From positions 83,460 through 147,459 of the forward strand of contig DJJR01000022.1 of NCBI GenBank assembly GCA_002434245.1: 64,000 nucleotides of DNA. Reading direction: 5' to 3'. A program made the translations under genes and the position numbers. Below the pieces are notes generated by a model, which worked only from the letters and a program-made list of their open reading frames with translations, ran no database searches and was not told the origin of the DNA. This document shows, one piece after another, positions 13,162 through 35,029 of the stretch. How positions within the stretch are numbered: position 1 is the first letter of the stretch; each line of letters begins with the position of its first letter. This DNA comes from Pelosinus fermentans (GTDB lineage: Bacteria; Bacillota; Negativicutes; DSM-13327).

Positions 13162-14127
13162 ATGAGCGATGTTACGAAAGAACAATTATTGGATTTTTAT
13201 AAAACAATGCTGACGATCCGTAAATTTGAAGATAAGGCAGCCGAATTATTTGCAGCAGGCAGGCTTCCTGGCTTTGTTCATCTGTATAGCGGGGAAGAGG
13301 CTGTGGCTACAGGCGTATGTGCCAGCCTGACAAATAAAGATTATATCACCAGTACTCATCGAGGTCATGGTCATTTAATTGCCAAAGGCGGACAAGTGGA
13401 TAAGATGATGGCAGAACTATTTGCCAAAGTGACAGGCTATTGTAAAGGCAGAGGCGGGTCCATGCATATTGCAGATGTGGATCTGGGTATTTTGGGGGCC
13501 AATGGTATTGTTGGCGCAGGACAGCCCATTGCAGTTGGTGCGGCATTTGCGAATCAGTATCTAAAGAATGATGCAGTTTCCGTATGCTTTTTTGGTGATG
13601 CTGCCTCCAATCGAGGTACCTTTCATGAAGCATTAAATCTGGCATCAGTTTGGAAGCTGCCAGTGATTTTTGTCTGTGAAAATAATCGTTTTGGTATTTC
13701 TATGAATCAAAAAGATCATATGAACATTGTGGATGTTTCTCAGCGGGCCATATCCTATGGTATTCCAGGAATCACAATTGATGGTAATGATGTTGCCGCC
13801 GTTTATGAAACGGCAAAGGATGCAATCAGCCGCGCAAGAAAGGGTGAAGGCCCAAGCTTGATTGAATGCAAAACCTGGAGACATTATGGACATTTCCAAG
13901 GAGATGCCGGTTTATATAAAGATGCTCAAGAACAAGAAGAGTGGCTCAAAAAAGACCCCATACTAAAATTAGAAGACAAATTAAAGGTCCTGAAATTTGC
14001 CAAGGATACGGAACTCAAGGAAATACAAGAGCAGATACAAGGGCAAATTGATGCGGCGGTTGCATTTGCCGAGAATAGTCCCGAGCCAAGTCCAGAAGAT
14101 GTTCTTGCCGATGTCTATGCTCCCTGA
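13162..14127 (+). CDS. acoA: Acetoin dehydrogenase-like E1 component, alpha subunit
   Basis: Thiamine diphosphate-dependent E1 alpha (321 aa). The family ThDP motif is present but slightly unusual, GDAASNRGTFHEALNLA (commonly GDGAxNxG), ending in CENN. The THRGHGH segment and GRGGSMHI loop are typical of acetoin/branched-chain/pyruvate E1 alpha subunits. TTAGGAGGG precedes ATG 13162. It is the first gene of an operon with E1 beta, E2, lipB, lipA, DUF6506 and E3. The acetoin assignment rests on the AcoR gene and sigma-54 promoter upstream; a pyruvate or other 2-oxo acid substrate is possible. Confidence 0.85.
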   Translation: MSDVTKEQLLDFYKTMLTIRKFEDKAAELFAAGRLPGFVHLYSGEEAVATGVCASLTNKDYITSTHRGHGHLIAKGGQVDKMMAELFAKVTGYCKGRGGSMHIADVDLGILGANGIVGAGQPIAVGAAFANQYLKNDAVSVCFFGDAASNRGTFHEALNLASVWKLPVIFVCENNRFGISMNQKDHMNIVDVSQRAISYGIPGITIDGNDVAAVYETAKDAISRARKGEGPSLIECKTWRHYGHFQGDAGLYKDAQEQEEWLKKDPILKLEDKLKVLKFAKDTELKEIQEQIQGQIDAAVAFAENSPEPSPEDVLADVYAP

Positions 14128-14240
14128 TTGCCGCTAGATTGCTGGCCTGCAAGAAAAGGGATATAGAGTATGACTTCCCTAAGGATTGCTGTTTAGAATC
14201 GGTAATTTGATTGATACAGAACAAAGAAAGGATGAAAAAA

Positions 14241-15209
14241 ATGAAAAAAATGACATATGCCGAAGCCATTCGGGATGGTATGAGAGTAGAAATGCAAAGG
14301 GACGCCAACGTATATATTGCAGGTGAAGATGTAGGTAAATTTGGAGGCTGCTTTGGAGTTACCGCAGGATTATTTGATGAATTTCCTGGGCGGGTACTTG
14401 ACACGCCGATTAGTGAAACAGCGATTGTTGGCCATGCTGTTGGTGCCGCAGCAGCTGGACTGCGTCCAGTTGTCGAAATTATGTTCATTGACTTTATGGG
14501 TGTATGTATGGATGAATTGTTTAATCAGGCTGCAAAGATGCGATATATGTTTGGCGGCAAAGCAAAGGTCCCTATGGTGGTACGGACTCCATGCGGCGGC
14601 GGTATGACGGCATCGGCTCAGCATTCCCAATGTATCGAAGCATGGTTCACTCATATACCCGGGATAAAAACAATTATGCCTTCAACCCCAGCCGATGCAA
14701 AAGGCTTAATGGCGGCAGCCATTCGGGATGATAACCCTGTCATGTATATTGAGCATAAGCAGCTGCTGGCCATGAGCGGTGAGGTACCGGAAGGTGAATA
14801 TGTCATTCCTCTGGGCAAAGCAGATATAAAAAGAGCAGGATCGGATGTAACCATTGTTGCCTGGTCATGGATGCTTCATAAAGCATTAGCCGCGGCTGAT
14901 CAATTAGCCAAGGAAGGAATTAGTGCAGAAGTCGTTGATTTGCGTACGCTGGTTCCTTTAGATAAGGAATGTATTTTGCAGTCTGTTGCGAAGACAAACA
15001 GACTCGTGGTGGTAAACGAAGCGGTTCGTACCAGCGGCTTTGCTGGTGAGATCGCAGCTATTGTGGTGGAAGAAGGTTTTGATTTGCTCGATGCTCCCAT
15101 CGTGCGGGTCACTGCACTTGACATCCCCGTTCCCTTTAATGCGAAACTAGAAGCCGTTTACTTACCCAATGAAACCAAAATCATAGCAGCAGTAAAGAGC
15201 TTATTTTAA
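14241..15209 (+). CDS. acoB: Acetoin dehydrogenase-like E1 component, beta subunit
   Basis: E1 beta (322 aa), which forms the ThDP-binding heterotetramer with the alpha subunit. Features are the GEDVGKFGGCFG segment, [51 protein letters not shown] and the C-terminal transketolase_C part with VNEAVRTSGFAGEIAA. ATG 14241 is about 9 bases after AAGG; nearby in-frame ATGs at 14232 and 14250 and a TTG at 14211 are alternatives. The two E1 beta genes in the window (this one and 26575) are clearly paralogous. Confidence 0.87.
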   Translation: MKKMTYAEAIRDGMRVEMQRDANVYIAGEDVGKFGGCFGVTAGLFDEFPGRVLDTPISETAIVGHAVGAAAAGLRPVVEIMFIDFMGVCMDELFNQAAKMRYMFGGKAKVPMVVRTPCGGGMTASAQHSQCIEAWFTHIPGIKTIMPSTPADAKGLMAAAIRDDNPVMYIEHKQLLAMSGEVPEGEYVIPLGKADIKRAGSDVTIVAWSWMLHKALAAADQLAKEGISAEVVDLRTLVPLDKECILQSVAKTNRLVVVNEAVRTSGFAGEIAAIVVEEGFDLLDAPIVRVTALDIPVPFNAKLEAVYLPNETKIIAAVKSLF

Positions 15210-15255
15210 AAATAGAGAAAGGTATTTTAGTGAAAGAACGCGGGGGAAAAATGAT

Positions 15256-15340
15256 TGAACCGCAGAGGCACAGAGCGCGCGGAGGAATATTTTATAATCT
15301 TATCTATTTTTCTCTGTGTTCTCTGCGTCTCTGCGGTTCA
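15256..15340 (+). repeat. Palindromic repeat family B, copy between acoB and acoC
   Basis: TGAACCGCAGAGGCACAGAG pairs with CTCTGTG..CTCTGCGTCTCTGCGGTTCA. It lies inside the operon. The E2 reading frame is open through it, which would give a false 43-residue extension. Confidence 0.88.
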
Positions 15341-15383
15341 AAAGGGACACATAGCGTATAAAGTGATAAAGGAGTGCGAACAT

Positions 15384-16607
15384 ATGGCAGTAGAAATTAC
15401 TATGCCGAAAATGGGTCTGTCCATGGTAACAGGAACCATTGTGAAATGGCTAAAGAATGAAGGAGATGCAGTCACTAAGGGCGATATTATTCTGGAGGTA
15501 ATGACAGATAAACTGACTAATACCATTGATGCTCCAGCAGATGGCGTGCTGCTCAGGATCGTTGCCCAAGAGGAAGAAGAACTTCCCATTGGTGCTTTAC
15601 TGGGTGTGATTGGTATGGAAGGTGAAGTAGTTCAAGGTGCAAAAACTACCAGCAAAGCAGCACCTGCTGCAGAGCCAATGATTTCCGAAACGAAGCAGGC
15701 AGATAGTAGCAGCCATGAAGTTACGGGAAATAGAGTGAAGGCTTCTCCTTTAGCCCGCAAGTTAGCCAAGGAAAATAATGTGGATTTTACGCAGATTACC
15801 GGTACCGGTCCATCAGGGCGAATTGTCCGAGATGACGTTCTTGCATGTATTGCCCAAGGTGGAAATTCCCAGCAGGCAAGCACACAAAAAAGCATTGGCA
15901 GCCCTGCTCCCATTGAAGAGCAGGACAACTTTACTCTGACTCCTTATGCCGGCATGCGAAAAGCCGTCGGTGATAATATGTCTCTTAGCTGGTCCGTTGC
16001 GCCAAAAGTCAATTACCATGTCAGTACGGATCTTTCTGCGTTGCTGGCCTTACGAAAAACCATTAATGAAGAAGCACAAGTCAAGATCACCATTACAGAT
16101 ATGCTGGTGAAAATTGTTGCTGTGGCACTTAGAATGTCGCCGCATATTAATATCGCATTGGTTGACAAAAATATTAGAAATTATAAGGAAGTCCATGTAG
16201 GGGTGGCTGTTGCCATTAGTCAAGGGTTAGTTGTACCGGTAGTGAAACATGCAGATATCAAAACGATCTCTCAAATTAGCCGGGAAATTAAAGACCTATC
16301 CTTGCGGGCAAGAGACAATCAGTTAGGTATGCAGGAAATGCGGGGAGGGACCTTTACGGTTACGAATATCGGCGCATATCAATCCGTTGATTGGTTTACC
16401 CCTATCATCAATCAGCCGGAAGCAGCGATTTTAGGAGTAGGCAGAACGGTAGACACACCTGTAGTAGAAAATGGAGAAATTGTAATTAAACCAATGATTG
16501 GACTTTCCTTATCCTTTGACCACCGTGTCATTGATGGGGCACCTGCCGCTGCATTCTTAGGATTACTTTTAAAATTGATTAAAAAACCATATCAAGCCTT
16601 GATTTAA
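15384..16607 (+). CDS. acoC: Dihydrolipoamide acyltransferase E2 of the acetoin dehydrogenase-like complex
   Basis: E2 core, 407 aa from ATG 15384 after AAAGGAGTGCG. Lipoyl domain (1-78) with the lipoylated lysine in MTDKLT (about K43). A linker follows, then one peripheral subunit-binding domain (about 116-152, KASPLARKLA..GRIVRDDV) and a catalytic domain with the active-site motif DHRVIDGAPAA near the C-terminus. It transfers the acetyl group from E1 to CoA. The longer frame back to 15255 is repeat DNA. Unlike the second E2 in this window it has a single subunit-binding domain. Confidence 0.9.
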   Translation: MAVEITMPKMGLSMVTGTIVKWLKNEGDAVTKGDIILEVMTDKLTNTIDAPADGVLLRIVAQEEEELPIGALLGVIGMEGEVVQGAKTTSKAAPAAEPMISETKQADSSSHEVTGNRVKASPLARKLAKENNVDFTQITGTGPSGRIVRDDVLACIAQGGNSQQASTQKSIGSPAPIEEQDNFTLTPYAGMRKAVGDNMSLSWSVAPKVNYHVSTDLSALLALRKTINEEAQVKITITDMLVKIVAVALRMSPHINIALVDKNIRNYKEVHVGVAVAISQGLVVPVVKHADIKTISQISREIKDLSLRARDNQLGMQEMRGGTFTVTNIGAYQSVDWFTPIINQPEAAILGVGRTVDTPVVENGEIVIKPMIGLSLSFDHRVIDGAPAAAFLGLLLKLIKKPYQALI

Positions 16608-16621: not shown

Positions 16622-17350
16622 ATGGTACGCAAGGGATACTGTATAGAACTTGAAGTTTGCAGTTATGATGAAATTCTTCATTTACAGGAGGCTCTAAATC
16701 GGGCCAGGCAGCTGGGTGCTATCCCGGATACGCTGCTTCTCCTCGAGCATCAGCCTTGCTTTACCATAGGAAGAAAAAAAGGCAGTTCCAATCATCTGTT
16801 AGTCAGTCAACAGGTATTAGATGAACAGCACATCAAAGTATTTGAATCAAATCGGGGCGGGGACATTACCTATCACGGTCCGGGACAATTGATCTGTTAT
16901 CCTATCATTGGCTTAACAGGAATGCATAAGGATGTTCATGCGTACGCCAATAGAATGGAAGAAGTATTGATCAGAACACTGGCGTGTTTTGAGATTGCAG
17001 CGACGCGCAAAAAAGAATATCCGGGAGTATGGGTAGAGGATCGAAAAATTGGTGCAATTGGCATTGCGATCCGTAAATGGGTCACGATGCATGGCGTTTC
17101 TCTAAATGTCTGCCCCAATCTAACACATTTTTCTTTTATTGTACCTTGCGGCATTACATCCTTGGGAGTCACCTCGATGTCTCGAATATTGGAGAGGGTA
17201 GATCCTAGAGCGGTACGGAGGCAATTGCGAAAACAATTTGAAGAATTATTTGAAATACAAACAGAGCTAGTGAGTGTAGAGCGGATAAAGGAGATGGTTC
17301 ACTATGCTGAGACCGGCATGGTTAGTTGTTCCGGCACCCAATCAGGATGA
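16622..17350 (+). CDS. lipB: Octanoyltransferase LipB
   Basis: Moves the octanoyl group from acyl carrier protein to lipoyl domains (242 aa). The RGGDITYHGPGQ motif (about 78-89) and the catalytic pair K142 (in RKIGAIGI) and C176 (in PCGITSLG) are present. TAGGAGG lies just upstream. The 3' end overlaps lipA by 47 bases, which is long for two separate genes and may reflect partial splitting of a fused ancestor or tight coupling. It sits in the operon whose E2 needs lipoylation. Confidence 0.92.
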   Translation: MVRKGYCIELEVCSYDEILHLQEALNRARQLGAIPDTLLLLEHQPCFTIGRKKGSSNHLLVSQQVLDEQHIKVFESNRGGDITYHGPGQLICYPIIGLTGMHKDVHAYANRMEEVLIRTLACFEIAATRKKEYPGVWVEDRKIGAIGIAIRKWVTMHGVSLNVCPNLTHFSFIVPCGITSLGVTSMSRILERVDPRAVRRQLRKQFEELFEIQTELVSVERIKEMVHYAETGMVSCSGTQSG

Positions 17351-18161
17351 TCTTGCCCAGATGCAATCTATGCTGAATGCAGGCAATTTACATACGGTAT
17401 GTGAAAGTGCAAATTGCCCCAACATCGGAGAATGCTTTTCCCAGAAGACTTGTACATTTATGATTTTGGGAAACATATGCACTCGCAATTGCCGATTTTG
17501 TGCCGTAGAGCATGGGCAGCTGCCCTTGCCTGTGGACAGGGAAGAACCTAAGGCCGTGGCATTGTCTGCCAAGCAGCTGAACCTTGCCTATGTGGTGGTA
17601 ACTTCTGTCACAAGAGATGATTTGCCTGATGGTGGTGCAGGACATTTTGCTAAAACCATACAGGAGATTCGTCAGGTATTGCCGGCAGCGAAAGTCGAAG
17701 TGCTGATTCCTGATCTTTTGGGACAGTTTGCATCACTAAAGCAGATTATTGATGCGGGACCGGAGGTAATTAGTCATAATATCGAAACCGTGCCACGCTT
17801 ATATAAAGATGTGCGGCCACAGGCGATTTATGAACGGTCTCTTCAACTACTCAAACGGGTTAGTAATAGTGGTAAAAATATTGCCAAAGCTGGTATTATG
17901 CTTGGGTTGGGAGAAGGACATGACGAGGTGCTGCAAACCATGGTTGATATAAAAGCAGCGGGCTGCCAAATCTTGACCATTGGACAGTATCTCCGCCCGT
18001 CTGCCCAGCATCACCCTATTATGGAATATATTCATCCCACCGTTTTTAACATGTGGGAAGAGAAGGCATATGAGATTGGCTTTAGCCAAGTTGTTTCCGG
18101 TCCAATGGTGCGGAGTTCCTATCATGCAGGACAATGTTATGCAAAAACATTTCGTAGTTAA
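17304..18161 (+). CDS. lipA: Lipoyl synthase LipA
   Basis: Radical SAM enzyme (285 aa) that inserts two sulfurs into octanoyl-lipoyl domains. The auxiliary cluster cysteines are C33, C38, C44 (CESANCPNIGEC) and the radical SAM triad is C59, C63, C66 (CTRNCRFC). The C-terminal RSSYHAG motif supplies the serine ligand of the auxiliary cluster. ATG 17304 lies inside the end of lipB, 11 bases after AAGGAG. All required residues are intact. Confidence 0.93.
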   Translation: MLRPAWLVVPAPNQDDLAQMQSMLNAGNLHTVCESANCPNIGECFSQKTCTFMILGNICTRNCRFCAVEHGQLPLPVDREEPKAVALSAKQLNLAYVVVTSVTRDDLPDGGAGHFAKTIQEIRQVLPAAKVEVLIPDLLGQFASLKQIIDAGPEVISHNIETVPRLYKDVRPQAIYERSLQLLKRVSNSGKNIAKAGIMLGLGEGHDEVLQTMVDIKAAGCQILTIGQYLRPSAQHHPIMEYIHPTVFNMWEEKAYEIGFSQVVSGPMVRSSYHAGQCYAKTFRS

Positions 18162-18529: not shown

Positions 18530-19930
18530 ATGAAAAAAAAAGTAATTATTGTTGGAGGCGGTCCCGGGGGCTATGTGGCAGCCATTCGCGCGGCACAACT
18601 GGGGGCTGAGGTTCATATTGTTGAAAAGGAAAAAATGGGCGGGACATGTTTAAATGTGGGCTGCATTCCCACCAAAGCCCTTCTCCATACTGCCAAGCTA
18701 TACCATACTGTGAAGAAAGAAACAAATAATGGACTGCGCGTCGAGGGGATATCCTTGGATTGGCCAGCCCTTATGGCTCGTAAGGATACGATTGTAAATC
18801 GCCTGGTGCAAGGAGTAAGGGGACTCTTAAAAGCCCATGGAGTGAAGACTCATAGTGGGCGGGCAGTATTGAAAGATTCTCACAAAGTTCAGGTAGTAGG
18901 TGAAAGGACTGTAACTCTTGATGCGGACATTATTGTGCTGGCTTCCGGTTCTGTTCCCAGTAAAATCCCTGTACCCGGTGCAGATAATGCTGGAGTCATT
19001 GACAGTACGGCAGCCTTAAGTTTGCCTAAAGTGCCAAAGTCCTTGGTTATTGTTGGCGGTGGCGTTATTGGTACAGAGTTTGCATCATTATATAGTTCTT
19101 TTGGTACAAAGGTCACCATTGTCGAAATGCTGCCGGAAATATTACCGATGGTAGATCGCCAAATTGCCAAGAGAGTAAAGGAAAAGTTAACTGAGGGCAG
19201 CATCAATTTTATGCTGGAAGCAGGACTAAAAGAAATACTGCCAACCTCTAACGGATTAAGTGCTGTAGTGCAAACTGCTGGTAAAAACCATGAAGTGGTA
19301 GGAGAATATATCTTGATGGCCACAGGACGTAAGGCCAACATTCATAATATGGGGCTTGAAGAAGTAGGAATCCAGACGGAGCGGGGGAGAATTGTTGTAA
19401 ATGAATATTTTGCAACAAATATACCTCATATTTATGCAATCGGTGACTGCAATGCTCAGATGATGCTGGCACATGCAGCATCTGCCCAAGGCGTTGCAGC
19501 CGTTGAATATGCGTTAGGTCATCGTCCTTTCTACAATCCTAAAGTTATTCCTTCTTGCATTTATACCATTCCAGAAGCTGCAGGTGTGGGACTTACGGAA
19601 GATGAAGCAGCGGCTCAGGGGATATCCTATAAAGTTGGTTTATTTCCTTTAATGGCAAATGGGAAGTCTCTCATTGAAGGATGTGAGTCTGGTCTGGTTA
19701 AATTAATTGTCGCTGAAAAAAGCGGAGAAATTCTAGGCGGACATATTTTTGGACCAAGAGCCACTGATTTGATTGGAGAAATTGCTTTGGCAATGAATCT
19801 GGAAGCAACAGTGGATGAAGTCATTGCAACAATCCATGCTCATCCTACCATGAGTGAAGGTATTGCTGAAGCTGCGCTCAGTGTGAACGGCAATGCAATC
19901 CATTGGCCCCCAGGAGCAAAGATACTATAA
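18530..19930 (+). CDS. lpdA: Dihydrolipoamide dehydrogenase (E3), copy 1
   Basis: FAD- and NAD-dependent E3 (466 aa) that reoxidises the lipoyl arm. The N-terminal GGGPGGYVAAIRAAQLGA binds FAD. The redox disulfide is in GGTCLNVGCIPTKALL (about C40 and C45). The second nucleotide motif is VIVGGGVIGTEFASLY, and the C-terminal His-Glu pair is in HAHPTMSEGIAEAA. GGAGAG precedes the ATG. It is the last gene of the operon, followed by a palindromic repeat that may end the transcript. Confidence 0.93.
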   Translation: MKKKVIIVGGGPGGYVAAIRAAQLGAEVHIVEKEKMGGTCLNVGCIPTKALLHTAKLYHTVKKETNNGLRVEGISLDWPALMARKDTIVNRLVQGVRGLLKAHGVKTHSGRAVLKDSHKVQVVGERTVTLDADIIVLASGSVPSKIPVPGADNAGVIDSTAALSLPKVPKSLVIVGGGVIGTEFASLYSSFGTKVTIVEMLPEILPMVDRQIAKRVKEKLTEGSINFMLEAGLKEILPTSNGLSAVVQTAGKNHEVVGEYILMATGRKANIHNMGLEEVGIQTERGRIVVNEYFATNIPHIYAIGDCNAQMMLAHAASAQGVAAVEYALGHRPFYNPKVIPSCIYTIPEAAGVGLTEDEAAAQGISYKVGLFPLMANGKSLIEGCESGLVKLIVAEKSGEILGGHIFGPRATDLIGEIALAMNLEATVDEVIATIHAHPTMSEGIAEAALSVNGNAIHWPPGAKIL

Positions 19931-23514: not shown

Positions 23515-23533
23515 AAAAAGTAAGTTATACATA

Positions 23534-25505: not shown

Positions 25506-25595
25506 CGTAATCATTTAGAATCGTAGTAAAGGAGTGGTTGTTATAGAAGGATTCTTTCAATCATCGTAATGACTAAGTATATAGGAGGAATTGAA

Positions 25596-26555
25596 ATGAA
25601 ATTGAGTAAAGAAACGTTAATAAGCTGGTATAAGAAAATGCTGCATACTCGGTTTTTTGAAGCCCAGGTTGATGCATTTTTTGCAAAAGGTATGATTCAT
25701 GGTACGACTCATCTGTCAATTGGTCAAGAAGCTTTCGCTATTGGTTCTACTGCTGCGCTCTATGCAGATGATTTAATTACCAGTACCCATCGGGGACATG
25801 GGGAATGCATCGGTAAAGATGCAGACTTAAATCGTATGATGGCTGAATTGATGGGAAAATCCAACGGTTATTGCAAAGGAAAGGGCGGCTCTATGCATAT
25901 TGCCGATTTAGAAAAAGGTAATTTAGGTGCCAATGGCGTAGTTGGCGGCGGCTTTGCCATTGCTGTAGGCGCTGCACTTACACAGCAGATGAAAAAAACT
26001 GGAAAAGTAGTTTTGTGCTTCTTTGGTGATGGAGCCAGCAATGAAGGTTCTTTTCATGAGGCCTTGAATTTAGCGTCGATTTGGAAGCTGCCTGTGGTAT
26101 TTATGTGTACTAACAATCATTATGGTATGTCTATGTCGGTTGCAAGAAGTACAGCAGTCGCCAATATAGCGGATCGTGCTGCTTCTTATGAGATGCCTGG
26201 TATTACTGTGGACGGCAATGATCCTATAAAAGTATACGAAGCAACCTTGGCAGCAGTGGAACGTGCCAGAAGTGGTGAAGGTCCTTCTATTGTGGAAGGA
26301 ATTACGTATCGATGGCTGGGGCATTCCAAGAGTGATGCCAATCGGTATCGGACAAAAGAAGAAATTGAAGCCTGGAAAGATCGATGCCCCATTAAAGCCT
26401 TTGAAAAATATCTGATTAAAAACAATGTAATCTCCCAGCAAGAATCAGATGAAATTACGGCTGGTGCGAAAGACGATATCGCCCGTGCGGTAGAATTTGC
26501 CCAGCAGGGCTCTTACCCTGGTATTGAAACCTTAGAGGAAGATGTGTACGCATAA
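25596..26555 (+). CDS. 2-oxo acid/acetoin dehydrogenase E1 alpha, second operon
   Basis: 319 aa. It has the full ThDP signature GDGASNEGSFHEALNLA ending CTNN, the STHRGHGE segment and GKGGSMHIAD. ATG 25596 follows ATAGGAGGAATTG; an in-frame ATG at 25569 has no ribosome site. It is paralogous to the gene at 13162 and starts the second complex operon, under a different kind of control (SorC divergent gene, no -24/-12 site seen). The substrate could be acetoin, pyruvate or another 2-oxo acid; sequence alone does not decide. Confidence 0.86.
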   Translation: MKLSKETLISWYKKMLHTRFFEAQVDAFFAKGMIHGTTHLSIGQEAFAIGSTAALYADDLITSTHRGHGECIGKDADLNRMMAELMGKSNGYCKGKGGSMHIADLEKGNLGANGVVGGGFAIAVGAALTQQMKKTGKVVLCFFGDGASNEGSFHEALNLASIWKLPVVFMCTNNHYGMSMSVARSTAVANIADRAASYEMPGITVDGNDPIKVYEATLAAVERARSGEGPSIVEGITYRWLGHSKSDANRYRTKEEIEAWKDRCPIKAFEKYLIKNNVISQQESDEITAGAKDDIARAVEFAQQGSYPGIETLEEDVYA

Positions 26556-26574: not shown

Positions 26575-27555
26575 ATGACGATGGCATTGATAACCTATAA
26601 AGAGGCTGTAAGGCAAGCCATGCAAGAAGAAATGCGCCGGGATGAAAATGTATTTTTACTAGGTGAAGATGTAGGGGTATATGGCGGCGCTTTTGGCGTA
26701 TCCTTGGGTATGCTTGAGGAATTCGGCGAAGAAAGAGTACGGGACACGCCCATTTCTGAAGGCGTTATTGCAGGTGCTGCGGCAGGTGCTGCTGTGACAG
26801 GTCTGCGTCCCATCGCGGAAATTATGTTTAGTGATTTTATTACCATTGCTATGGATTCCTTAGTCAATCAGGCTGCTAAAATGCGCTATATGTTTGGCGG
26901 TAAAGCAAAGGTTCCTATGGTGCTTAGAATGCCGGGAGGTTCGGGAACAGGTGCCGCAGCTCAGCATTCGCAGAGCTTAGAGGCTTGGCTTGTTCATGTA
27001 CCGGGTTTAAAGGTAGTTATGCCTTCCACTCCTTATGATGTGAAAGGTTTATTAAAAACGGCGATTCGGGATGACAATCCTGTTGTATTTATTGAGACAA
27101 AAACCGTTTATAACAAAAAAGGAGAAGTACCAGAAGAAGACTATGTCATTCCCTTTGGAGCAGCAGATGTAAAACGAATTGGCAGGGATGTTACTGTACT
27201 TGCTACAGGCGTCATGGTTCACCGATCGCTGGAAGCTGCAGAAATCTTAGCGAAAGAGGGCATCGATGTAGAAGTAATCGATCCTCGTACCTTGGTGCCA
27301 TTTGATAAAGAAACATTGGTAAAATCCGTGATTAAAACCGGTAAGCTGATCATTGTGCATGAAGCCTGCAAGAGAGGCGGTTTCGGCGGTGAAGTGGCAG
27401 CAGAAGTGATGGAAAGTGAAGCCTTTGACTATTTGGATGCACCGATAAAACGCGTTGCAGGAAAAAACATTCCGATCCCTTATTGTATGGAACTGGAGAA
27501 GAGTGCTGTGCCTCAGGTAGATGACATCGTAAACGCTGTTAGGGAAATTGTATAA
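26575..27555 (+). CDS. 2-oxo acid/acetoin dehydrogenase E1 beta, second operon
   Basis: 326 aa. It carries [51 protein letters not shown] and the C-terminal [18 protein letters not shown] segment. ATG 26575 is about 8 bases after AAAGGAG; ATG 26581 is a possible alternative. It partners the E1 alpha 20 bases upstream. The [15 protein letters not shown] loop differs from the first paralogue (TPCGGGMTASAQHSQ). Confidence 0.87.
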
Positions 27556-27571: not shown

Positions 27572-28858
27572 ATGGCAACAGAACTGTTAATGCCGAAGCT
27601 CGGGATGACCATGGAAGAGGGTACTATTGTTACCTGGTTTAAAAAAGTCGGAGATTCGGTTGCGGAAGGCGAAATATTGCTGGAGATATTGACTGATAAA
27701 GTCAATATGGAAGTCGAGGCTCCTGCTGCAGGGCAAGTGCTGGCCATAATCGCGGCAGAGGGTGATATTGTTGAGGTTAATAAACCCATTGCTTATATTG
27801 GCCAGCCGGGAGAAAAGGTAGAGAGCCATGCTGCCCAGATTCTAAAGACTGAAGAACAGCATACAGCCCAAGTGGCAGCAACAGCTGCTCCTGTGCAAAG
27901 TGCAGAAGGAATTGGCGGTAAAGTCAAAGCCAGCCCAGCAGCAAAGCGGATAGCCCGTGAAGAAGAGATTGATCTACATGCCGTTTCCCCAAGCGGTCCT
28001 GGCGGGAGAATTATTGCAGTAGACGTTACGAATTATAAAGCCAGTCCCCTGGCGCAAAAAATTGCCCAGGATAAAGGTGTGGATCTGGCGGAAGTTGCAG
28101 GTACTGGCATTGGCGGCAAGATCGTGAAAGCAGATGTTGAGAGTGCTGTGGCAAAACTAGGGTCAAAAACCAAAGGAGCTCGTAAGCCGTTAGCAGGAAT
28201 GCGTAAAGTCATCGCCGATCATATGGCAGATGCATGGGCAGCGCCTCACGTTACTCATAATATGGAAGTGGATATGTCAGGTATGGTAGAACTGCGCAAA
28301 AAGCTTATACCTGGTATTGAAAAACGCACCGGTGTAAAGCCTTCTTATAATGATCTTATTATTAAAGTCGTCGCCAAAGCATTACGGGAATACCAGCAAG
28401 TGATTAATGCCAGGCTGCATTCGGATGGTTTGGAAATTTGTGATGAAGTGAATGTAGGTATGGCAGTGGCCTTGCCAAATGGTTTAGTGGTGCCAGTCAT
28501 AAAAAATGCAGACACTCTCAGTATTGAGGAAATTACAAAGCGGGCAAAAGAATTGGCGATGCAGGCAAAAGAGGGAAAATTACTGCCGGACGAAATGTCA
28601 GGGGGGACTTTTACCGTAACCAACCTAGGCATGTATGGCATCGACACATTTACGCCTATTGTCAATGCTCCGGAAGTTTGTATTCTTGGAGTTGGACAAT
28701 TGCAGGATAAAGTAGTTGCCAAGGATGGAGAAATGATCATTCAGCCGCGTATGTCCCTATCTCTTTCCTTTGATCATCGGGCAGTAGATGGAGCCCAAGC
28801 GGCAGAATTTTTAAGAAGAATAAAAGAACTACTAGAAGATTACTTACAGCTTATCTAA
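27572..28858 (+). CDS. Dihydrolipoamide acyltransferase E2 with two tandem E3-binding domains
   Basis: 428 aa from ATG 27572 after AGGAGGAATA. Lipoyl domain 1-78 (lysine in LTDKVN, K43). Then two consecutive peripheral subunit-binding domains, about 117-153 (KASPAAKRIA..GGRIIAVDV) and 156-192 (KASPLAQKIA..GGKIVKADV), before the catalytic domain ending with DHRAVDGAQAAEF. E2 proteins usually have one such domain. The second one most resembles the single domain of the paralogue at 15384, and the first looks like an internal duplication. Both should bind E3 or E1. Confidence 0.9.
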   Translation: MATELLMPKLGMTMEEGTIVTWFKKVGDSVAEGEILLEILTDKVNMEVEAPAAGQVLAIIAAEGDIVEVNKPIAYIGQPGEKVESHAAQILKTEEQHTAQVAATAAPVQSAEGIGGKVKASPAAKRIAREEEIDLHAVSPSGPGGRIIAVDVTNYKASPLAQKIAQDKGVDLAEVAGTGIGGKIVKADVESAVAKLGSKTKGARKPLAGMRKVIADHMADAWAAPHVTHNMEVDMSGMVELRKKLIPGIEKRTGVKPSYNDLIIKVVAKALREYQQVINARLHSDGLEICDEVNVGMAVALPNGLVVPVIKNADTLSIEEITKRAKELAMQAKEGKLLPDEMSGGTFTVTNLGMYGIDTFTPIVNAPEVCILGVGQLQDKVVAKDGEMIIQPRMSLSLSFDHRAVDGAQAAEFLRRIKELLEDYLQLI

Positions 28859-28867: not shown

Positions 28868-29020
28868 GAGTCTTGAGTTTCTCGGAACGTCTCTTTTAGG
28901 ACGGCAAAGGATGAGCATAACTAACGCTTCAACCTGTTACTTAACCTACGCTTATAGTTATGCTCATCCTTTGCCTGTTTACCGCTGGCTGTTTCTCGAG
29001 AAGTACACAGGGTCTCTTTT
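28868..29020 (+). repeat. Operon-internal palindromic repeat, family A, copy 2
   Basis: The core arms are GGCAAAGGATGAGCATAACT (from 28903) and GTTATGCTCATCCTTTGCC (to 28975). The loop sequence CTTAACCTACGCTTATAG is the same as in copy 1. It lies between the E2 and E3 genes of the second operon; the E3 ribosome site AAGGAGG begins right after. Confidence 0.85.
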
Positions 29021-29034: not shown

Positions 29035-30420
29035 ATGAACTATCAGGTTGTAGTATTAGGGGGAGGACCAGGCGGTTATGTAGCCGCCATTAAAGCTGCT
29101 CAATGCGGACTAAAAGTGGCATTGGTGGAAAAAGATTCTCTGGGGGGAACATGTCTGAATCGGGGCTGCATTCCGACCAAGGCTTTGCTTAGGAGTGCAG
29201 AAGTCTATGAAACCATCAATAAGGCAAAAGAATTTGGTATTGAAGCTTCCCCTGTCAGCGTGGATGCAAAGAAAATTTTTGCCCACAAGGATGGTATTGT
29301 AAAACAGTTGGTTAATGGCGTAAAGGGTTTAATTCAGGCGAATAAAATCGATTTATATAGTGGAAGCGGTAAGGTGCTTACCCCTCACCAAGTGGAAGTT
29401 AATGAAAAATCAGGAACTACAACGATTACAACCGAGAAACTAATCTTGGCTACGGGATCAAAACCTTTTGTTCCAGCGATTCCTGGGTTTGATCTTCCGG
29501 GGGTCATAACCAGTGATGAGGCCTTAGATTTAGGAGCCATTCCAAAGTCCATGGTGATTATTGGCGGCGGCGTTATTGGCCTGGAATTTGCTTATTTAAT
29601 GCAGACTTTTGGCTGCAAGGTAACCATCATTGAGATGATGCCTGTTCTTTTACCGATGGCAGACAAAGAAGCAGTAGAAGTGCTGGTAAGCTCTTTGGAA
29701 AAATTGGGAGTGACCTTCTTTACCAATGCCAAAGTGAGCAAGATCGCAAAGGCAGAAGCTGCTTTAGCCGTTGAGTATCAGATTGATACTATAACGTATA
29801 GGGTAGAAGGGGAAAAAGTGCTGGTTTCAACTGGGCGGGCAGCCAGCGTCGCAGGAATTGAAAGCCTGCATTTGCACGGGAAAAAGGGTATTTCGGTGAA
29901 TGCGCAAATGGAAACCAGTATTTCAGGCGTTTTTGCGATCGGAGATGTAGTAGGCGGTATTCAACTGGCACATGTGGCTTCCGCTCAAGGGATTGTTGCA
30001 GCGCAAAACGCAGCGGGAATCAATTCTTCCTACCATGATGATGCCATTCCTTCTTGCATTTATACGAATCCGGAAGTTGCTTGGGTTGGTATGAATGAAC
30101 AGGCAGCCAAAGAAAAATACGGCAGTATAAAAGTGGGGAAATTTCCATTTCAAGCCAGTGGCAAGGCCATGGCTTACGGAGAAACAAAGGGCTTTGTAAA
30201 AATAATTTGTGAGGAACAATATGGTGAAATCTTGGGAGTGCATATTGTTGGACCTCATGCAACGGATCTGATTTCGGAAGGCGTATTGGCAAAATCCATG
30301 GAAGCCACCCTGGAAGAACTGGCCCATGTGATTCATCCTCACCCTACCCTGTCAGAAGCCATCATGGAGGCCGCCCACGTGGCAATGGGGCAAGGTATAC
30401 ACTTCATAGCAAAGCTATAA
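29035..30420 (+). CDS. lpdA: Dihydrolipoamide dehydrogenase (E3), copy 2
   Basis: 461 aa. FAD motif GGGPGGYVAAIKAAQCG, redox disulfide in GGTCLNRGCIPTKALL, second Rossmann motif MVIIGGGVIGLEFAYLM, and C-terminal HPHPTLSEAIMEAA with the catalytic His-Glu pair. AAGGAGGAAAACCG precedes the ATG. It serves the second dehydrogenase complex; the paralogue at 18530 serves the first. Confidence 0.93.
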   Translation: MNYQVVVLGGGPGGYVAAIKAAQCGLKVALVEKDSLGGTCLNRGCIPTKALLRSAEVYETINKAKEFGIEASPVSVDAKKIFAHKDGIVKQLVNGVKGLIQANKIDLYSGSGKVLTPHQVEVNEKSGTTTITTEKLILATGSKPFVPAIPGFDLPGVITSDEALDLGAIPKSMVIIGGGVIGLEFAYLMQTFGCKVTIIEMMPVLLPMADKEAVEVLVSSLEKLGVTFFTNAKVSKIAKAEAALAVEYQIDTITYRVEGEKVLVSTGRAASVAGIESLHLHGKKGISVNAQMETSISGVFAIGDVVGGIQLAHVASAQGIVAAQNAAGINSSYHDDAIPSCIYTNPEVAWVGMNEQAAKEKYGSIKVGKFPFQASGKAMAYGETKGFVKIICEEQYGEILGVHIVGPHATDLISEGVLAKSMEATLEELAHVIHPHPTLSEAIMEAAHVAMGQGIHFIAKL

Positions 30421-30450: not shown

Positions 30451-30543
30451 AAAACACGAAGGTTGCGAAGATGTACCAAGACCACGAAGGGACATTACGT
30501 TTATTTTCGATTCGATCGATTCTTCGCATCTTCGCGGTTCAAA
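30451..30543 (+). repeat. Palindromic repeat family B, decayed copy before the LipB-LipA fusion
   Basis: The right arm CTTCGCATCTTCGCGGTTCA is intact. The left arm is partly eroded (AACACGAAGGTTGCGAAGATG). The CACGAAGG blocks are typical of the family. Confidence 0.7.
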
Positions 30544-30598
30544 ATTATTTTTTTTGTAACATGTTAGAAATTGCTGTATTGGTCTAGGAGGTGGAGTT

Positions 30599-32128
30599 GT
30601 GATTGTATTAAATTGGGGACTTACTCCCTATCAGCATGGCTGGGAATTTCAACACTCTTTCGTCAAAGCGCGGCGTCAGGGGCAGATCAGTGAAGATGCA
30701 TTGGTATTGCTGGAGCATCCCCCCGTAATCACTCTAGGGCGCAAAGGGGTAAGGGCCAATATTCTCGCAAGTGATGCTGTACTTGCAGCCAAAGGCTGCG
30801 AAGTCTGCCAGGTGGATCGGGGCGGGGATGTTACTTTTCATGGTCCGGGTCAGTTAGTAGGCTATCCTCTGCTGGATCTGCGTCATTATGGTCAGGATGT
30901 TCATGCTTATGTGGAGAAACTGGAAGAAGTCGTAATTCGCACCTTGAGAGATTATGGAATTGAAGCGGTTAGAGATGAGGAATATACAGGTGTGTGGGTA
31001 GGCTGGGAAAAGATCTGCGCCATTGGCATTGGTATGAAAAGCTGGCTGAGCTATCATGGTTTTGCTCTTAATATTGACGTTGACTTATCCTATTTCCAAT
31101 TGATTACACCTTGCGGGATTACAGGGCGAGGCGTAACCAGCATGGCGAAGATATTGGGAAAAACACCCCAAATGCAGACAGTACGAGAAACAGTAACCAC
31201 CCACTTTATGACTGTATTTGGAATTAAGCATTGGGAGCTGGCAGAAGGACGCTGGTTAGGAGAAACCATCAAACCATCTTGGCTCAAGGGGCATGTGTCA
31301 GGAAACAGCAGTGTCCAGGAGATGTATGGAATGTTGGATGAATTCGCTTTAACCACGGTTTGTTCCGGGGCTCATTGCCCTAATATTGGTGAGTGTTATG
31401 CGTCGAGGACAGCTACATTTATGATCTTAGGGAGTCAATGTACAAGGCGCTGCCGGTTTTGCGCTGTTCCTAAAGGTGTTGTGCAGCCTGTAGATCAGGA
31501 TGAACCCCAGCGTGTCGCTCAAATGGTGAAGAAGTTAGGACTTAACTATGTAGTGATTACCTCCGTTACACGTGATGATCTTGCTGATGGGGGAGCTGCC
31601 CATTTTTCACATACCATACAAAGAATCCGTGAGCTTTCTCCAGAAACCTTAATTGAAGTTTTGATTCCGGATTTACAAGGTGAAGAAAGTGCCTTGGACA
31701 TCATTATTGCTGCTCAGCCGGAAGTAATCAATCACAATGTGGAGACCATCCCCGCCCTATACTCTCGTGTGCGTCCTCAGGCCAATTATCAGCGGTCTTT
31801 AGACGTGCTGCAATACGTGAAGAAAAATGCTCCTCAAATCGTAACCAAGTCAGGAATCATGGTTGGTCTGGGAGAATCACCAGCTCAGGTTGCAGCTACG
31901 CTGGCTGACTTACGCAGTGTAGGTTGTGATAGCTTGACAGTAGGACAATATCTGGCTCCTTCCTCAGAGCATATTCCCGTTGCAGAATATATAGTGTCGG
32001 AACAGTTTCAATCTTACCAGCAATTAGCAAAACAGCTTGGCTTTTCTCATGCTGCCTGTGGCCCGTTGGTACGTTCTTCCTACCATGCCGCAGAAGGGTT
32101 TTTTCCGAAAATAAGTCTTTCCTCTTAA
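30599..32128 (+). CDS. LipB-LipA fusion: octanoyltransferase joined to lipoyl synthase
   Basis: A single 509-residue protein. Residues 1-215 are LipB: RGGDVTFHGPGQ (74-85), catalytic K138 (EKICAIGI) and C172 (PCGITGRG). Residues about 235-509 are LipA: auxiliary cluster C255, C260, C266; radical SAM C281, C285, C288 (CTRRCRFC); C-terminal RSSYHA with the ligand serine. No in-frame stop or sequence break is seen across the join (about 215-240), and all catalytic residues of both halves are kept. GTG 30599 follows TAGGAGGTGG. It ends the second complex operon and would octanoylate and thiolate lipoyl domains in one polypeptide. The first operon has the same two functions as overlapping separate genes. 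Confidence 0.92.
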   Translation: MIVLNWGLTPYQHGWEFQHSFVKARRQGQISEDALVLLEHPPVITLGRKGVRANILASDAVLAAKGCEVCQVDRGGDVTFHGPGQLVGYPLLDLRHYGQDVHAYVEKLEEVVIRTLRDYGIEAVRDEEYTGVWVGWEKICAIGIGMKSWLSYHGFALNIDVDLSYFQLITPCGITGRGVTSMAKILGKTPQMQTVRETVTTHFMTVFGIKHWELAEGRWLGETIKPSWLKGHVSGNSSVQEMYGMLDEFALTTVCSGAHCPNIGECYASRTATFMILGSQCTRRCRFCAVPKGVVQPVDQDEPQRVAQMVKKLGLNYVVITSVTRDDLADGGAAHFSHTIQRIRELSPETLIEVLIPDLQGEESALDIIIAAQPEVINHNVETIPALYSRVRPQANYQRSLDVLQYVKKNAPQIVTKSGIMVGLGESPAQVAATLADLRSVGCDSLTVGQYLAPSSEHIPVAEYIVSEQFQSYQQLAKQLGFSHAACGPLVRSSYHAAEGFFPKISLSS

Positions 32129-32360: not shown

Positions 32361-32473
32361 GATCGGTATAAATTGTAAGGAATAATCTGAAAATGTAAGT
32401 AGATGAAACCCCACAGCAGAAAAAATCAGACTATTCATAGTGTGTAGATATGATTTGAATGGCATATTTTGTT

Positions 32474-32489
32474 TGGCACGTTATTTGCA
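32474..32489 (+). promoter_or_regulatory. Consensus sigma-54 (-24/-12) promoter of the first gat-type PTS operon
   Basis: TGGCACGTTATTTGCA matches the sigma-54 consensus TGGCACG-N4-TTGCA at every fixed position. It is about 90 bases upstream of the EIIA start and near genes for two sigma-54 activators. Confidence 0.9.
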
Positions 32490-32579
32490 ATAGATAGTAT
32501 CAGAATCGCTTACGGGCAATACGGTTCTATCGTAATGAAGCATGTACAAGAAAACAAGATTGAGTCAAAGGAGGATTTA

Positions 32580-33053
32580 ATGATAGTGGATTTTACGCTG
32601 CTGCTAAAGGAAGAGCTAATGATGGTGCCTCTTGTGGCAAGCAACCGGGAGGATGCATTTGAAAAGCTGGCACTTGGTTTGGAACAACACGGTTTTGTAA
32701 AGGATACCTATTTAGAGGCAGTAAAAAAAAGGGAGAGAGCTTTCCCCACGGGATTGTGCACGGGAGAAATTAATGTGGCTATTCCCCATACGGATGTAGA
32801 GCATGTCGTTCAAGGTGCTATGGCAGTAGGAGTGCTGGAAAAGCCAGTTCTTTTTGCCAATATGGAGAATCCTAAAGTGGAGATTGAGGTTTCGATTATA
32901 TTTATGCTGGCATTAAAGGATGCTCATGAGCAGCCTGTATTCCTGCAAAAATTGGCAGGCTTGTTCCAGGATAAGGAGCTTCTGCATAACTTGGCATCTA
33001 AAACAAGTACCAGTGCTGCGTATCAGTTATTGCTTTCTGCCCTTGCTTGTTAA
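32580..33053 (+). CDS. gatA: PTS EIIA, galactitol/fructose type
   Basis: 157 aa EIIA of the PTS type-2 (mannitol/fructose/galactitol) fold; the phosphorylated histidine is H70 in VAIPHTD. RERAFPTGL upstream of it is a family hallmark. ATG 32580 follows AAAGGAGGATT; a longer frame from 32469 runs over the sigma-54 promoter and is rejected. It accepts phosphate from HPr and passes it to the EIIB at 33289. The substrate is probably a polyol or related sugar, not known. Confidence 0.88.
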   Translation: MIVDFTLLLKEELMMVPLVASNREDAFEKLALGLEQHGFVKDTYLEAVKKRERAFPTGLCTGEINVAIPHTDVEHVVQGAMAVGVLEKPVLFANMENPKVEIEVSIIFMLALKDAHEQPVFLQKLAGLFQDKELLHNLASKTSTSAAYQLLLSALAC

Positions 33054-33128
33054 GGAAAAAAGAGAGGAGGGATGGAGCCGATAGCAAACAGAGATTGTGA
33101 CTGGAAATAAGGTAAGAGCATTATACAA

Positions 33129-33264
33129 GCAGTCTATCGGGAAATCTTATTTAGGGACGGCAAAGGGTGAGTATAACTACCACTTCGCCGTTGTACTTAA
33201 CCTACGCTTATAGTTATGCTCATCCTTTACCTGTTTACGGCTATAGTTGTTTTCGAGAGTATAC
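33129..33264 (+). repeat. Operon-internal palindromic repeat, family A, copy 3
   Basis: The core arms GGCAAAGGGTGAGTATAACT (from 33159) and AGTTATGCTCATCCTTTACC are slightly diverged. The loop CTTAACCTACGCTTATAG is identical to the other copies. The flanks (TCTATCGGGAAATC and GTTTTCGAGAGTA) resemble copy 1. It lies between the EIIA and EIIB genes. Confidence 0.8.
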
Positions 33265-33288
33265 TACAAATTTGAGGAGGAAAAGGAT

Positions 33289-33582
33289 ATGGCTGGAGAA
33301 AAAAGAATTTTGGTTGCTTGTGGAACCGGGGTATGTACCTCTACGATGGCAGTTAATAAATTAAAGGATGCACTGGAAAAAAGAGGCAAATTGAAGCTAG
33401 TAAAGATTAATCAATGTAAAATTGCGGAAATCGCGTCTATGGCATCGGACAATGACTTAGTGGTGGCGACGACGCAGGTATCAGCAAAAATTAATATTCC
33501 TGTAGTAACAGGGACGGCTTTCTTAACTGGAATTGGGGTGGATAAAGTAGTAGAGGAAATTATTGATCATCTCAAAATTTAA
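33289..33582 (+). CDS. gatB: PTS EIIB, galactitol type
   Basis: 97 aa EIIB with the phosphocysteine C11 in the CGTGVCTSTM loop. The start at ATG 33289 is set by GAGGAGGAAAAGG; the longer frame from 33247 lies in the repeat. The sequence fits the GatB family (PTS_IIB). It passes phosphate from EIIA to the sugar during transport by EIIC. Confidence 0.88.
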   Translation: MAGEKRILVACGTGVCTSTMAVNKLKDALEKRGKLKLVKINQCKIAEIASMASDNDLVVATTQVSAKINIPVVTGTAFLTGIGVDKVVEEIIDHLKI

Positions 33583-33599
33583 TTGAGGGGGAATCATGT

Positions 33600-34949
33600 G
33601 TGGAAATTATAAGTTATATTGTCAGCCTAGGTGCCAGTGTTATGATGCCAATTATTATTACCATATTAGGGTTATGCTTAGGTGCTAAATTAAGCAAGGC
33701 GATCCGTTCAGGTTTAATGGTTGGTGTAGGGTTCATTGGTTTAAACTTAGTTATCGGTTTATTAACCAGTACGCTAGGCCCGGCTTCACACGCTATGGTA
33801 GAAAAGCTTGGCCTGCAATTAACCGTGATTGATGTGGGATGGCCTGCTGCCGCCGCCATTGCTTTTGCATCAACTGTGGGGGCGATCATCATCCCCATTG
33901 GATTGGTAGTCAATATTATACTTTTGATTACGAAGCAGACGAGAACGGTGGATGTAGATATTTGGGATTATTGGCACTTTGCTTTTACTGGTGCCTTGGT
34001 TACAGCGGCTACCGATAGCATATTATGGGGTGGTTTTGCTGCTATTGTGAATATGATCATTGTATTTTATCTGGCAGATTGGACAGCCCCTGGAGTCGAA
34101 GAATACAACAAACTGCCCGGCGTTTCCCTGCCCCATGGTTTTTCGGCAGCCTATGTTCCGATTGCCATTGTAATTAACAAAATCATTGATATGATTCCTG
34201 GCATCCGAGACGTTAAAGCCGATCCGGAAACATTGCAAGAAAAGTTTGGCATATTTGGTGAACCTCTCATTATTGGCAGTATATTAGGTTTGCTTATTGG
34301 TGCGCTTGCAGGATATGATGTGAAAACCATTTTAACGGTAGGTATTACAATGGGAGGATGCTTGGTGCTGATTCCTAAAATGGCTTCTATGCTTATGGAG
34401 GGGCTTTTGCCTATATCTGATTCAGCACAGGAATTTATTCAGAAGCGGTTTAAGAATGCCGGGAAAATCTATATTGGCTTAGACTCGGCTGTGGCTATCG
34501 GACATCCTGCCTGCATGGCAGCTGCCTTAGTGCTTGTGCCGATTACCATCATCTTGGCCGCTGTTCTTCCCGGAAATCGAGTGCTTCCCTTTGCGGATTT
34601 AGCAGTACTTCCCTTCATGCTGGCTATGGTGGTTCCGGTAACCAAAGGTAATGTGTTTAGAACCTTTATTGTGGGGCTGGTCATGGTGACGATCGGATTA
34701 CTAATTGCTACGGATATGGCGCCATTGCATACACAGCTTGCCATAAATGCGAATTTTAAAATGCCGAGTGGCGCTACGCAGATTGCTTCTATTTGTGATG
34801 GAGCCAATCCCCTCACCTGGATTATTTTGCAGCTGACTGGTTTAAAGGCTGTTGGTGTGGCTGTTTTGGTAGCGGTCGTTGGAGCTATGGCCGTTATCAA
34901 TAGTAAAATTACGAAGCGCAGAGATGCCCAAGAGGATATACAAGCTTAA
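33600..34949 (+). CDS. gatC: PTS EIIC, galactitol type
   Basis: 449 aa membrane permease of the EIIC-Gat family. It is hydrophobic with about ten segments and a conserved charged loop after DIWDYWHFAFTG. GLDSAVAIGHPACMAA near the middle is a family-typical segment. The GTG at 33600 follows TTGAGGGGGA. It lies 18 bases after gatB. With gatA and gatB it forms a complete system; the polyol is not identifiable from sequence. Confidence 0.88.
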   Translation: MEIISYIVSLGASVMMPIIITILGLCLGAKLSKAIRSGLMVGVGFIGLNLVIGLLTSTLGPASHAMVEKLGLQLTVIDVGWPAAAAIAFASTVGAIIIPIGLVVNIILLITKQTRTVDVDIWDYWHFAFTGALVTAATDSILWGGFAAIVNMIIVFYLADWTAPGVEEYNKLPGVSLPHGFSAAYVPIAIVINKIIDMIPGIRDVKADPETLQEKFGIFGEPLIIGSILGLLIGALAGYDVKTILTVGITMGGCLVLIPKMASMLMEGLLPISDSAQEFIQKRFKNAGKIYIGLDSAVAIGHPACMAAALVLVPITIILAAVLPGNRVLPFADLAVLPFMLAMVVPVTKGNVFRTFIVGLVMVTIGLLIATDMAPLHTQLAINANFKMPSGATQIASICDGANPLTWIILQLTGLKAVGVAVLVAVVGAMAVINSKITKRRDAQEDIQA

Positions 34950-34956
34950 TATTGCT

Positions 34957-34999: not shown

Positions 35000-35029
35000 A
35001 TTGAAGACATATGAGGAGGAGGAAGTATA

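What the first reader, a model, noticed from the sequence alone, without database searches (positions are those of the whole stretch)
30599..32128. A single-chain LipB-LipA fusion in a lipoyl-complex operon
One frame encodes octanoyltransferase (K138, C172) followed by lipoyl synthase (three auxiliary-cluster and three radical SAM cysteines, RSSYH). All catalytic residues of both halves are present. LipB hands octanoyl-lipoyl domains to LipA, so fusing them could channel the substrate. The first operon in the same window has the two genes unfused but overlapping by 47 bases (17304-17350), so both a fused and an adjoining form are present side by side.
Basis: partly seen in the sequence, partly recalled or inferred. 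Interest (0 to 1): 0.72.

Follow-up and report, generated by a model that had tools for sequence, protein, structure and literature searches.

The report
LipB-LipA fusion enzyme for lipoic acid
One bacterial gene encodes, as a single protein, the two enzymes that attach and finish the lipoic acid cofactor; the fusion is genuine, but the same fusion occurs in many other bacteria and databases already label some of them as fusion proteins.

Summary
Window 30599-32128 encodes one 509-residue chain: a complete LipB octanoyltransferase (K138, C172) followed by a complete LipA lipoyl synthase (C255/C260/C266, C281/C285/C288, RSSY). It is no sequencing error: four same-genus genomes carry the same uninterrupted frame, ribosome site and GTG start. 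Operon 1 has unfused lipB and lipA overlapping by 47 bases, as stated.

The novelty claim fails. All 120 listed homologues are LipB-LipA fusions, from several phyla, and UniRef names four of them 'Multifunctional fusion protein'. A tree rejects one fused clade (p-AU 0.002), so the state changed repeatedly. Nine searches of an open-access library found no paper describing it. In an even phylum sample it is rare: 2 of 299 genomes.

More informative is the context. In the 10 genomes held from this GTDB family, LipA occurs only beside a dehydrogenase E2: 11 LipA for 11 E2, none in the five genomes without E2. The 8 same-genus genomes also carry a separate GcvH-LipS2-ligase set. Best reading: each dehydrogenase operon brings its own lipoylation enzymes, here as one chain. 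Activity, dedication and channelling are inferred.

The parts
30599..32128 (+). LipB-LipA fusion gene, 509 aa, GTG start
   Evidence: same frame and length in 4 of 4 same-genus loci examined
30586..30594 (+). ribosome-binding site AGGAGGTGG of the fusion
   Evidence: present in 4 of 4 same-genus loci
30599..31237 (+). LipB half, residues 1-213; K138 at 31010-31012, C172 at 31112-31114
   Evidence: TIGR00214 22-208, LplA-B_cat 11-203; PDB LipB chains 2qhs, 2qht, 1w66 match residues 3-211, 3-210 and 5-201
31238..31270 (+). linker, about residues 214-224 (limits approximate)
   Evidence: pLDDT under 50 at 221-226 and 230-232 in the model; length varies here in the alignment
31271..32101 (+). LipA half, residues 225-501; auxiliary-cluster Cys 255/260/266 (31361-31396), radical-SAM Cys 281/285/288 (31439-31462), RSSYH 492-496 (32072-32086)
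   Evidence: TIGR00510 225-501; residues; PDB LipA chains 4u0o, 5exi, 8tsk
25569..26555 (+). operon 2, E1 alpha of a 2-oxoacid/acetoin-type dehydrogenase
   Evidence: TIGR03182 366.4 bits, below its PDH cut-off of 393.85
26575..27555 (+). operon 2, E1 beta
   Evidence: NF006667 (PDH E1 beta subfamily) 419.1 bits, cut-off 321
27572..28858 (+). operon 2, E2, the presumed target; lipoyl-type DKV motif near its N-terminus
   Evidence: below the cut-offs of the PDH, OGDH and acetoin E2 models, so the substrate is not assigned; start taken where the profile match begins
29035..30420 (+). operon 2, E3 dihydrolipoyl dehydrogenase
   Evidence: TIGR01350 567.9 bits, cut-off 408.8
16622..17350 (+). operon 1, unfused LipB
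   Evidence: TIGR00214 160.9 bits, cut-off 83.55
17304..18161 (+). operon 1, unfused LipA, overlapping LipB by 47 nt in another frame
   Evidence: TIGR00510 353.9 bits, cut-off 310.25; own AAGGAG and ATG
13162..16607 (+). operon 1, E1 alpha (13162-14127), E1 beta (14211-15209), E2 (about 15384-16607)
   Evidence: E2 start taken where the profile match begins
18530..19930 (+). operon 1, E3 dihydrolipoyl dehydrogenase
   Evidence: TIGR01350 547.6 bits, cut-off 408.8

Best explanation
The gene makes a bifunctional lipoylation enzyme for the dehydrogenase complex encoded just upstream. The LipB half takes octanoate from octanoyl-ACP through C172 (with K138) and puts it on the lipoyl-domain lysine of E2; the LipA half, tied to it by a short flexible linker, inserts the two sulfurs. 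The fusion is one of several separate unions of two genes that are often neighbours, and probably serves equal dosage and local hand-over of octanoyl-E2. Shown here: the intact fused gene, its conservation in five genomes, the recurrence of the architecture, and the one-to-one pairing of E2 with LipA in the GTDB family. Inferred: both activities, E2 as the main target, co-transcription, and any channelling.
For: Both halves pass curated cut-offs and keep the known catalytic residues. The frame is uninterrupted and 509 aa long in 4 of 4 same-genus loci examined. 120 of 120 listed homologues have LipB then LipA in one chain. Tree of 97 rows (57 fused, 40 adjacent): 11 changes of state, at least 6 forced by starred branches of a quick tree; all fused as one clade rejected, p-AU 0.00196. 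In the 10 genomes held from this GTDB family, 11 E2 and 11 LipA places pair one to one, each pair within about 2.5 kb, and the 5 genomes without E2 have no LipA. AlphaFold2: mean pLDDT 85.4 with a low-confidence linker.
Against: No activity is shown. The model's pTM is 0.55, so the relative placing of the two halves is not known and gives no support to channelling. A 178-nt spacer holding an interspersed repeat lies between E3 and the fusion, so co-transcription is assumed; the terminator scan found none in that spacer. The one-to-one pairing rests on 10 related genomes; the five E2-positive ones share two operons by descent, and three of the E2-negative ones (G001, G002, G007) are only 83-89% complete. 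The link between fusion and an E2 neighbour elsewhere (8 of 10 fused against 8 of 27 adjacent rows, Fisher p 0.0095) is not independent evidence: only 3 independent pairs, no signal. In an even sample of the phylum the fusion is rare, 2 of 299 genomes, so it is no general need.
Confidence: 0.8

Rival explanations
1. Neutral merger: the fusion formed because lipB and lipA often overlap or abut in one operon, and it has no kinetic benefit or target preference; it works on any lipoyl domain in the cell. (Compatible with the core of the best explanation; it denies dedication and hand-over.)
For: Adjacent or overlapping lipB-lipA is common in the loci I read (55 of 139 LipA entries scored, which include repeats of the same place), so the step to fusion is small; in L017, L019, L024, L042 and L047 the two frames are in register with a single stop between them. 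Fused and unfused sets coexist in 5 of 8 same-genus genomes.
Against: The Pelosinus-Propionispora-P0016 clade has kept the fusion in all 5 rows of the tree, and each E2 operon keeps its own set instead of sharing one. Neither point excludes neutrality.
Confidence: 0.45
2. Sequencing or assembly artefact: a lost stop or frameshift joins two neighbouring genes.
For: None found.
Against: Same uninterrupted frame and length in four other genomes of the genus, and one-chain homologues P0002-P0019 at 59-96% identity.
Confidence: 0.01
3. The fused set arose inside this lineage from a duplicate of operon 1 by closing the lipB-lipA overlap.
For: The window's fused clade plus operon 1 as one clade is not rejected (p-AU 0.547); the constrained tree was even 2.1 log units better than the quick free tree.
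Against: Only 44.9% (LipB) and 52.0% (LipA) identity, hardly closer than either is to the third set (45.7-48.5% and 50.0-50.7%); gene order differs (E2-lipB-lipA-E3 against E2-E3-lipBA); the quick free tree does not join them, but that tree is not the best one found.
Confidence: 0.25

Closest known systems
LipB-LipA fusions in sequence databases; UniRef names P0003 (Pelosinus), P0011 (Propionispora), P0094 (Desulforhabdus) and P0108 (Desulfarculus) 'Multifunctional fusion protein'
   Same: Domain order LipB then LipA, 470-565 aa in the 120 listed, same residues in the 24 aligned
   Different: Nothing in architecture; this one stands on a contig with two further, unfused sets. Many relatives are simply called lipoyl synthase by their sources
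NCBIfam NF053790 LplA_LipA_fuse, bifunctional lipoate-protein ligase/lipoyl synthase
   Same: An acyl-attaching domain fused in front of LipA
   Different: Ligase (LplA) instead of octanoyltransferase (LipB); the window protein reaches 392.9 of the required 800 bits, matching the LipA part only
Pelobacter carbinolicus acetoin dehydrogenase cluster with lipB and acoS (PMC3543383, passages seen)
   Same: Octanoyltransferase and lipoyl synthase genes carried in the cluster of the dehydrogenase that needs them
   Different: Separate genes (Pcar_0350, Pcar_0346), not a fusion; the paper calls it that organism's only lipoate source
LipS1/LipS2-sLpl(AB) lipoate assembly, sometimes linked to canonical genes in Sporomusa (PMC10332631, passages seen)
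   Same: A second lipoate assembly set is present in this genome, and the off-window third operon lies beside a LipS2-like gene
   Different: The window's fusion is of the LipB/LipA type; the passages seen do not mention a LipB-LipA fusion

Membership tests
LipB octanoyltransferase | Curated LipB model above cut-off | tested here: met
   TIGR00214 170.8 bits against 83.55; NF010925 171.6 against 155. Three other LipB models (NF010922, NF010921, NF010923) score below their own cut-offs
LipB octanoyltransferase | Catalytic Lys and Cys (roles recalled, not from a call) | tested here: met
   K138 and C172, invariant in 24 fusions
LipA lipoyl synthase | Curated LipA model above cut-off | tested here: met
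   TIGR00510 355.3 bits against 310.25
LipA lipoyl synthase | CX4CX5C auxiliary-cluster motif, CX3CX2C radical-SAM motif, C-terminal RSSY serine (roles recalled) | tested here: met
   C255/C260/C266, C281/C285/C288, R492-S493-S494-Y495
LipB-LipA fusion protein | Both domains in one open frame, LipB first | tested here: met
   4 of 4 same-genus loci examined
LipB-LipA fusion protein | Both enzyme activities in one purified chain | not testable with these tools
   needs an assay or complementation
LplA_LipA_fuse (NF053790) | Whole-length model above 800 bits, LplA ligase in front | tested here: not met
   392.9 bits, profile positions 323-605 of 606 only

The most novel reading that the evidence does not exclude
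Private lipoylation: in this genus each dehydrogenase operon carries a lipoylation enzyme that serves its own E2, kept apart from a separate GcvH-LipS2-ligase route, and the fused form passes octanoyl-E2 directly from LipB to LipA without release.
Probability: 0.15. Interest if true: 0.55.

Novelty: new member of a known kind. Interest (0 to 1): 0.3.

Why it matters
The fusion ties together the last two steps of lipoate assembly, and its repeated appearance makes it a natural tool for asking whether octanoyl-E2 is handed from LipB to LipA or diffuses. A genome with three lipB/lipA sets, fused and unfused, plus a separate LipS2 set, offers a test of whether lipoylation enzymes are shared or dedicated to one target. 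As a discovery the fusion itself is modest: databases already recognise it.

Tried and rejected
Artefact at the join: spoken against by four same-genus genomes. Membership in the LplA-LipA fusion family: not met. Long open frames as a sign of fusion: of the 8 non-own LipA places with a frame of 450 aa or more in the phylum sample, one is a LipB-LipA fusion (G187/L144), one an LplA-DUF116-LipA fusion (G134/L143), and six show no LipB domain in front of LipA by phmmer; I take their length as chance and did not scan them with Pfam. The fusion as a preferred form beside E2 in other phyla: suggestive by count, not supported when relatedness is taken into account (loci under 7 kb were left out, and the E2 of L037 lies downstream and that of L070 on the other strand). 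A programmed frameshift joining operon 1 lipB and lipA: not pursued, because LipA has its own start and ribosome site. The RNA fold of the 178-nt spacer is no better than shuffles (z 0.18). A plasmid search gave nothing of 60% identity or more. The order-level searches returned the same 10 genomes as the family-level one, so they add no new genomes. Two of four planned clade tests (fused clade plus operon 3; operon 1 plus operon 3) did not finish and were not repeated. The model was not compared with structure libraries.

Limits: one search scored only the 7998 candidates sharing most words and lists the 120 best by whole-length score, which favours fusions; it shows breadth, not frequency. 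The tree is a quick one with SH-aLRT support only.

Rows left out of the tree: of 121 fused proteins (query included), 62 passed a redundancy filter with some forced in; I used the first 45 plus P0094 and P0108 (47). Of 72 loci with both domains I used 50; the 22 dropped are repeats of the same place, near-copies from the genus, copies of a place held under another id (L116, L123) and two cut by contig ends (L021, L078). L042 and L047 were not used because their LipB match was under the score limit.

Full report
What is there. Window 30599-32128 (+) is one open frame of 509 codons starting with GTG, with AGGAGGTGG four bases before the start. Its first part passes the curated LipB model and its second the curated LipA model; Pfam agrees. 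The lysine and cysteine of LipB (K138, C172), the six cysteines and the RSS of LipA are in place and do not vary among 24 fusions aligned. The roles of these residues are recalled textbook knowledge. Solved relatives of each half exist: LipA 4u0o, 5exi, 8tsk and LipB 2qhs, 2qht, 1w66; none of the 9 distinct solved sequences listed spans both halves.

Is it real. Four same-genus loci (L089, L091, L092, L093, from four different genomes) have the same 509-codon frame without a stop, the same GTG and the same AGGAGGTGG, while the bases further upstream have diverged. Differences from the window fall mostly on third codon positions (for example L092: 14, 11, 47 in the LipB part and 12, 9, 53 in the LipA part). 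The stretch round the join alone has too few changes (5 to 7 bases per pair) to say much. An assembly error at the join is very unlikely.

How common it is. A search of 5.8 billion proteins lists the 120 best homologues; all 120 have LipB then LipA in one chain. Names given by sources include Pelosinus, Propionispora, Desulfosporosinus, Desulforhabdus, Desulfarculus, a candidate division NPL-UPA2 bacterium and a Verrucomicrobiota bacterium; UniRef labels four (P0003, P0011, P0094, P0108) 'Multifunctional fusion protein', and others are just called lipoyl synthase. Of 80 loci kept from a scan of one genome per species, 10 hold both domains in one frame (one cut by its contig end), under record titles Pelosinus, Bacillota, Desulfocapsa, Desulfobulbaceae, Deltaproteobacteria (2), Chloroflexi/Chloroflexota/Anaerolineae (3) and Brevinema. 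These lists favour fusions by their scoring. In an even sample of 299 genomes of the phylum, 102 have LipA and only 2 were found with the LipB-LipA fusion, the window's own and G187.

Number of origins. A quick tree of 97 rows (57 fused, 40 adjacent pairs) from LipB and LipA together needs 11 changes of state, at least 6 on starred branches. Forcing all fused rows into one clade is rejected (p-AU 0.00196). The changes could be gains or losses. The window's fusion sits in an all-fused set of 5 rows with L008 (a Pelosinus record), P0003 (Pelosinus), P0011 (Propionispora) and P0016. Whether operon 1 of the window is sister to that set is not settled: holding them together is not rejected and gave a slightly better tree than the free search (p-AU 0.547). 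That the window comes from Pelosinus is inferred from these nearest named relatives.

The surroundings. The fusion follows E1 alpha, E1 beta, E2 and E3 of a dehydrogenase. E1 beta and E3 pass their cut-offs; E1 alpha and E2 score below the cut-offs of the models that would name pyruvate or 2-oxoglutarate as substrate, so the substrate (pyruvate, acetoin or another) is not assigned. Operon 1 (13162-19930) has the same four components with unfused lipB and lipA between E2 and E3, overlapping by 47 nt. A third set lies on the same contig 17-30 kb before the window: E1, E2, lipB and lipA overlapping by 26 nt, then two ligase-like genes, two GcvH-like genes, a GlcD-like and an iron-sulfur protein and a LipS2-like gene that is below its model's cut-off (216 of 270 bits). 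A linkage of canonical lipoate genes with lipS1/S2 in Sporomusa has been reported (PMC10332631, passages seen).

Pairing with E2. In the 10 genomes held from the window's GTDB family, LipA occurs at 11 places and E2 at 11 places; the same 5 genomes have both (3 and 3 in the window's genome, 2 and 2 in four others) and the same 5 have neither. By position each LipA lies within about 2.5 kb of one E2. All 8 same-genus genomes, with or without LipA, also have a GcvH, a LipS2 above its cut-off and a ligase/octanoyltransferase-type gene within about 6 kb of one another. So in this genus LipB/LipA appears to belong to the dehydrogenase operons and not to general lipoate supply. This rests on related genomes that inherited the same operons, and three of the E2-negative genomes are only 83-89% complete: a clear pattern in a small sample.

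Fusion and E2 elsewhere. Among loci of at least 7 kb (and the window's own operon 1), 8 of 10 fused and 8 of 27 adjacent rows have an E2 homologue within reach (Fisher p 0.0095), but only 3 independent pairs exist on the tree and they show nothing.

Model. AlphaFold2 on 24 sequences gives mean pLDDT 85.4, pTM 0.55, and low confidence at 221-226 and 230-232. This fits two folded enzymes on a flexible tether; it does not show how they face each other and gives no evidence on channelling.

Literature. Nine searches of the open-access library found no description of a LipB-LipA fusion. Most subscription papers are outside that library. PMC10332631 (passages), PMC3917532 (passages) and PMC3543383 (passages) deal with lipoate pathways without mentioning it in the passages seen; PMC4921024, a survey of metabolic gene fusions, has no occurrence of lipo-, LipA or LipB in its main text (word search only).

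Verdict. A real, intact LipB-LipA fusion, one member of a recurrent architecture known to databases. The working account (bifunctional enzyme, probably serving the E2 of its operon) is likely; dedication and hand-over are open.

Noticed in passing
L088:5163-18408 (same contig, 17-30 kb before the window): A third E1/E2/lipB/lipA set followed by two ligase-like, two GcvH-like, GlcD-like, iron-sulfur, reductase-like and LipS2-like genes: a mixed canonical and LipS-type lipoate cluster with two lipoate-carrier-like proteins beside an FAD/Fe-S oxidase pair (the iron-sulfur and reductase labels are my reading of the sequence).
   Followed up: partly
L143:2980-5556 (G134; also L036): An 859-residue frame with lipoate ligase catalytic and C-terminal domains, DUF116 and the LipA radical-SAM domain in one chain: another kind of lipoate fusion.
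   Followed up: partly
L017, L019, L024, L042, L047: LipB and LipA frames are in register with exactly one stop codon between them (TGA in L017, L019, L042; TAA in L024, L047; the LipB match is weak, 43 bits, in L042 and L047). In L019 an ATG follows the stop at once, so ordinary coupled genes are likely.
   Followed up: partly
window 12933-12964, 15247-15343, 19935-20061, 23426-23517, 30513-30555: An interspersed palindromic repeat (TTGAACCGCAGAG... / ...CTCTGCGGTTCAA and variants), one copy in the spacer before the fusion; another copy lies inside the listed N-terminal extension of the operon 1 E2 frame, which starts before the profile match.
   Followed up: no
window 28894-28986 and 33150-33242: A 93-nt repeat, 86% identical, in two spacers on either side of the fusion gene.
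   Followed up: no
window 32469-38700: Downstream: a PTS set of the EIIC-GAT type (EIIA, EIIB, EIIC), a class II aldolase and a sigma-54/PRD regulator; a sugar-binding-domain regulator stands upstream of operon 2 at 24153-25100. A sugar link of operon 2 is possible.
   Followed up: no
G000:C76:99342-105026: GcvH, LipS2 (over cut-off) and a ligase/octanoyltransferase-type gene within 6 kb; the same trio lies close together in all 8 same-genus genomes.
   Followed up: partly
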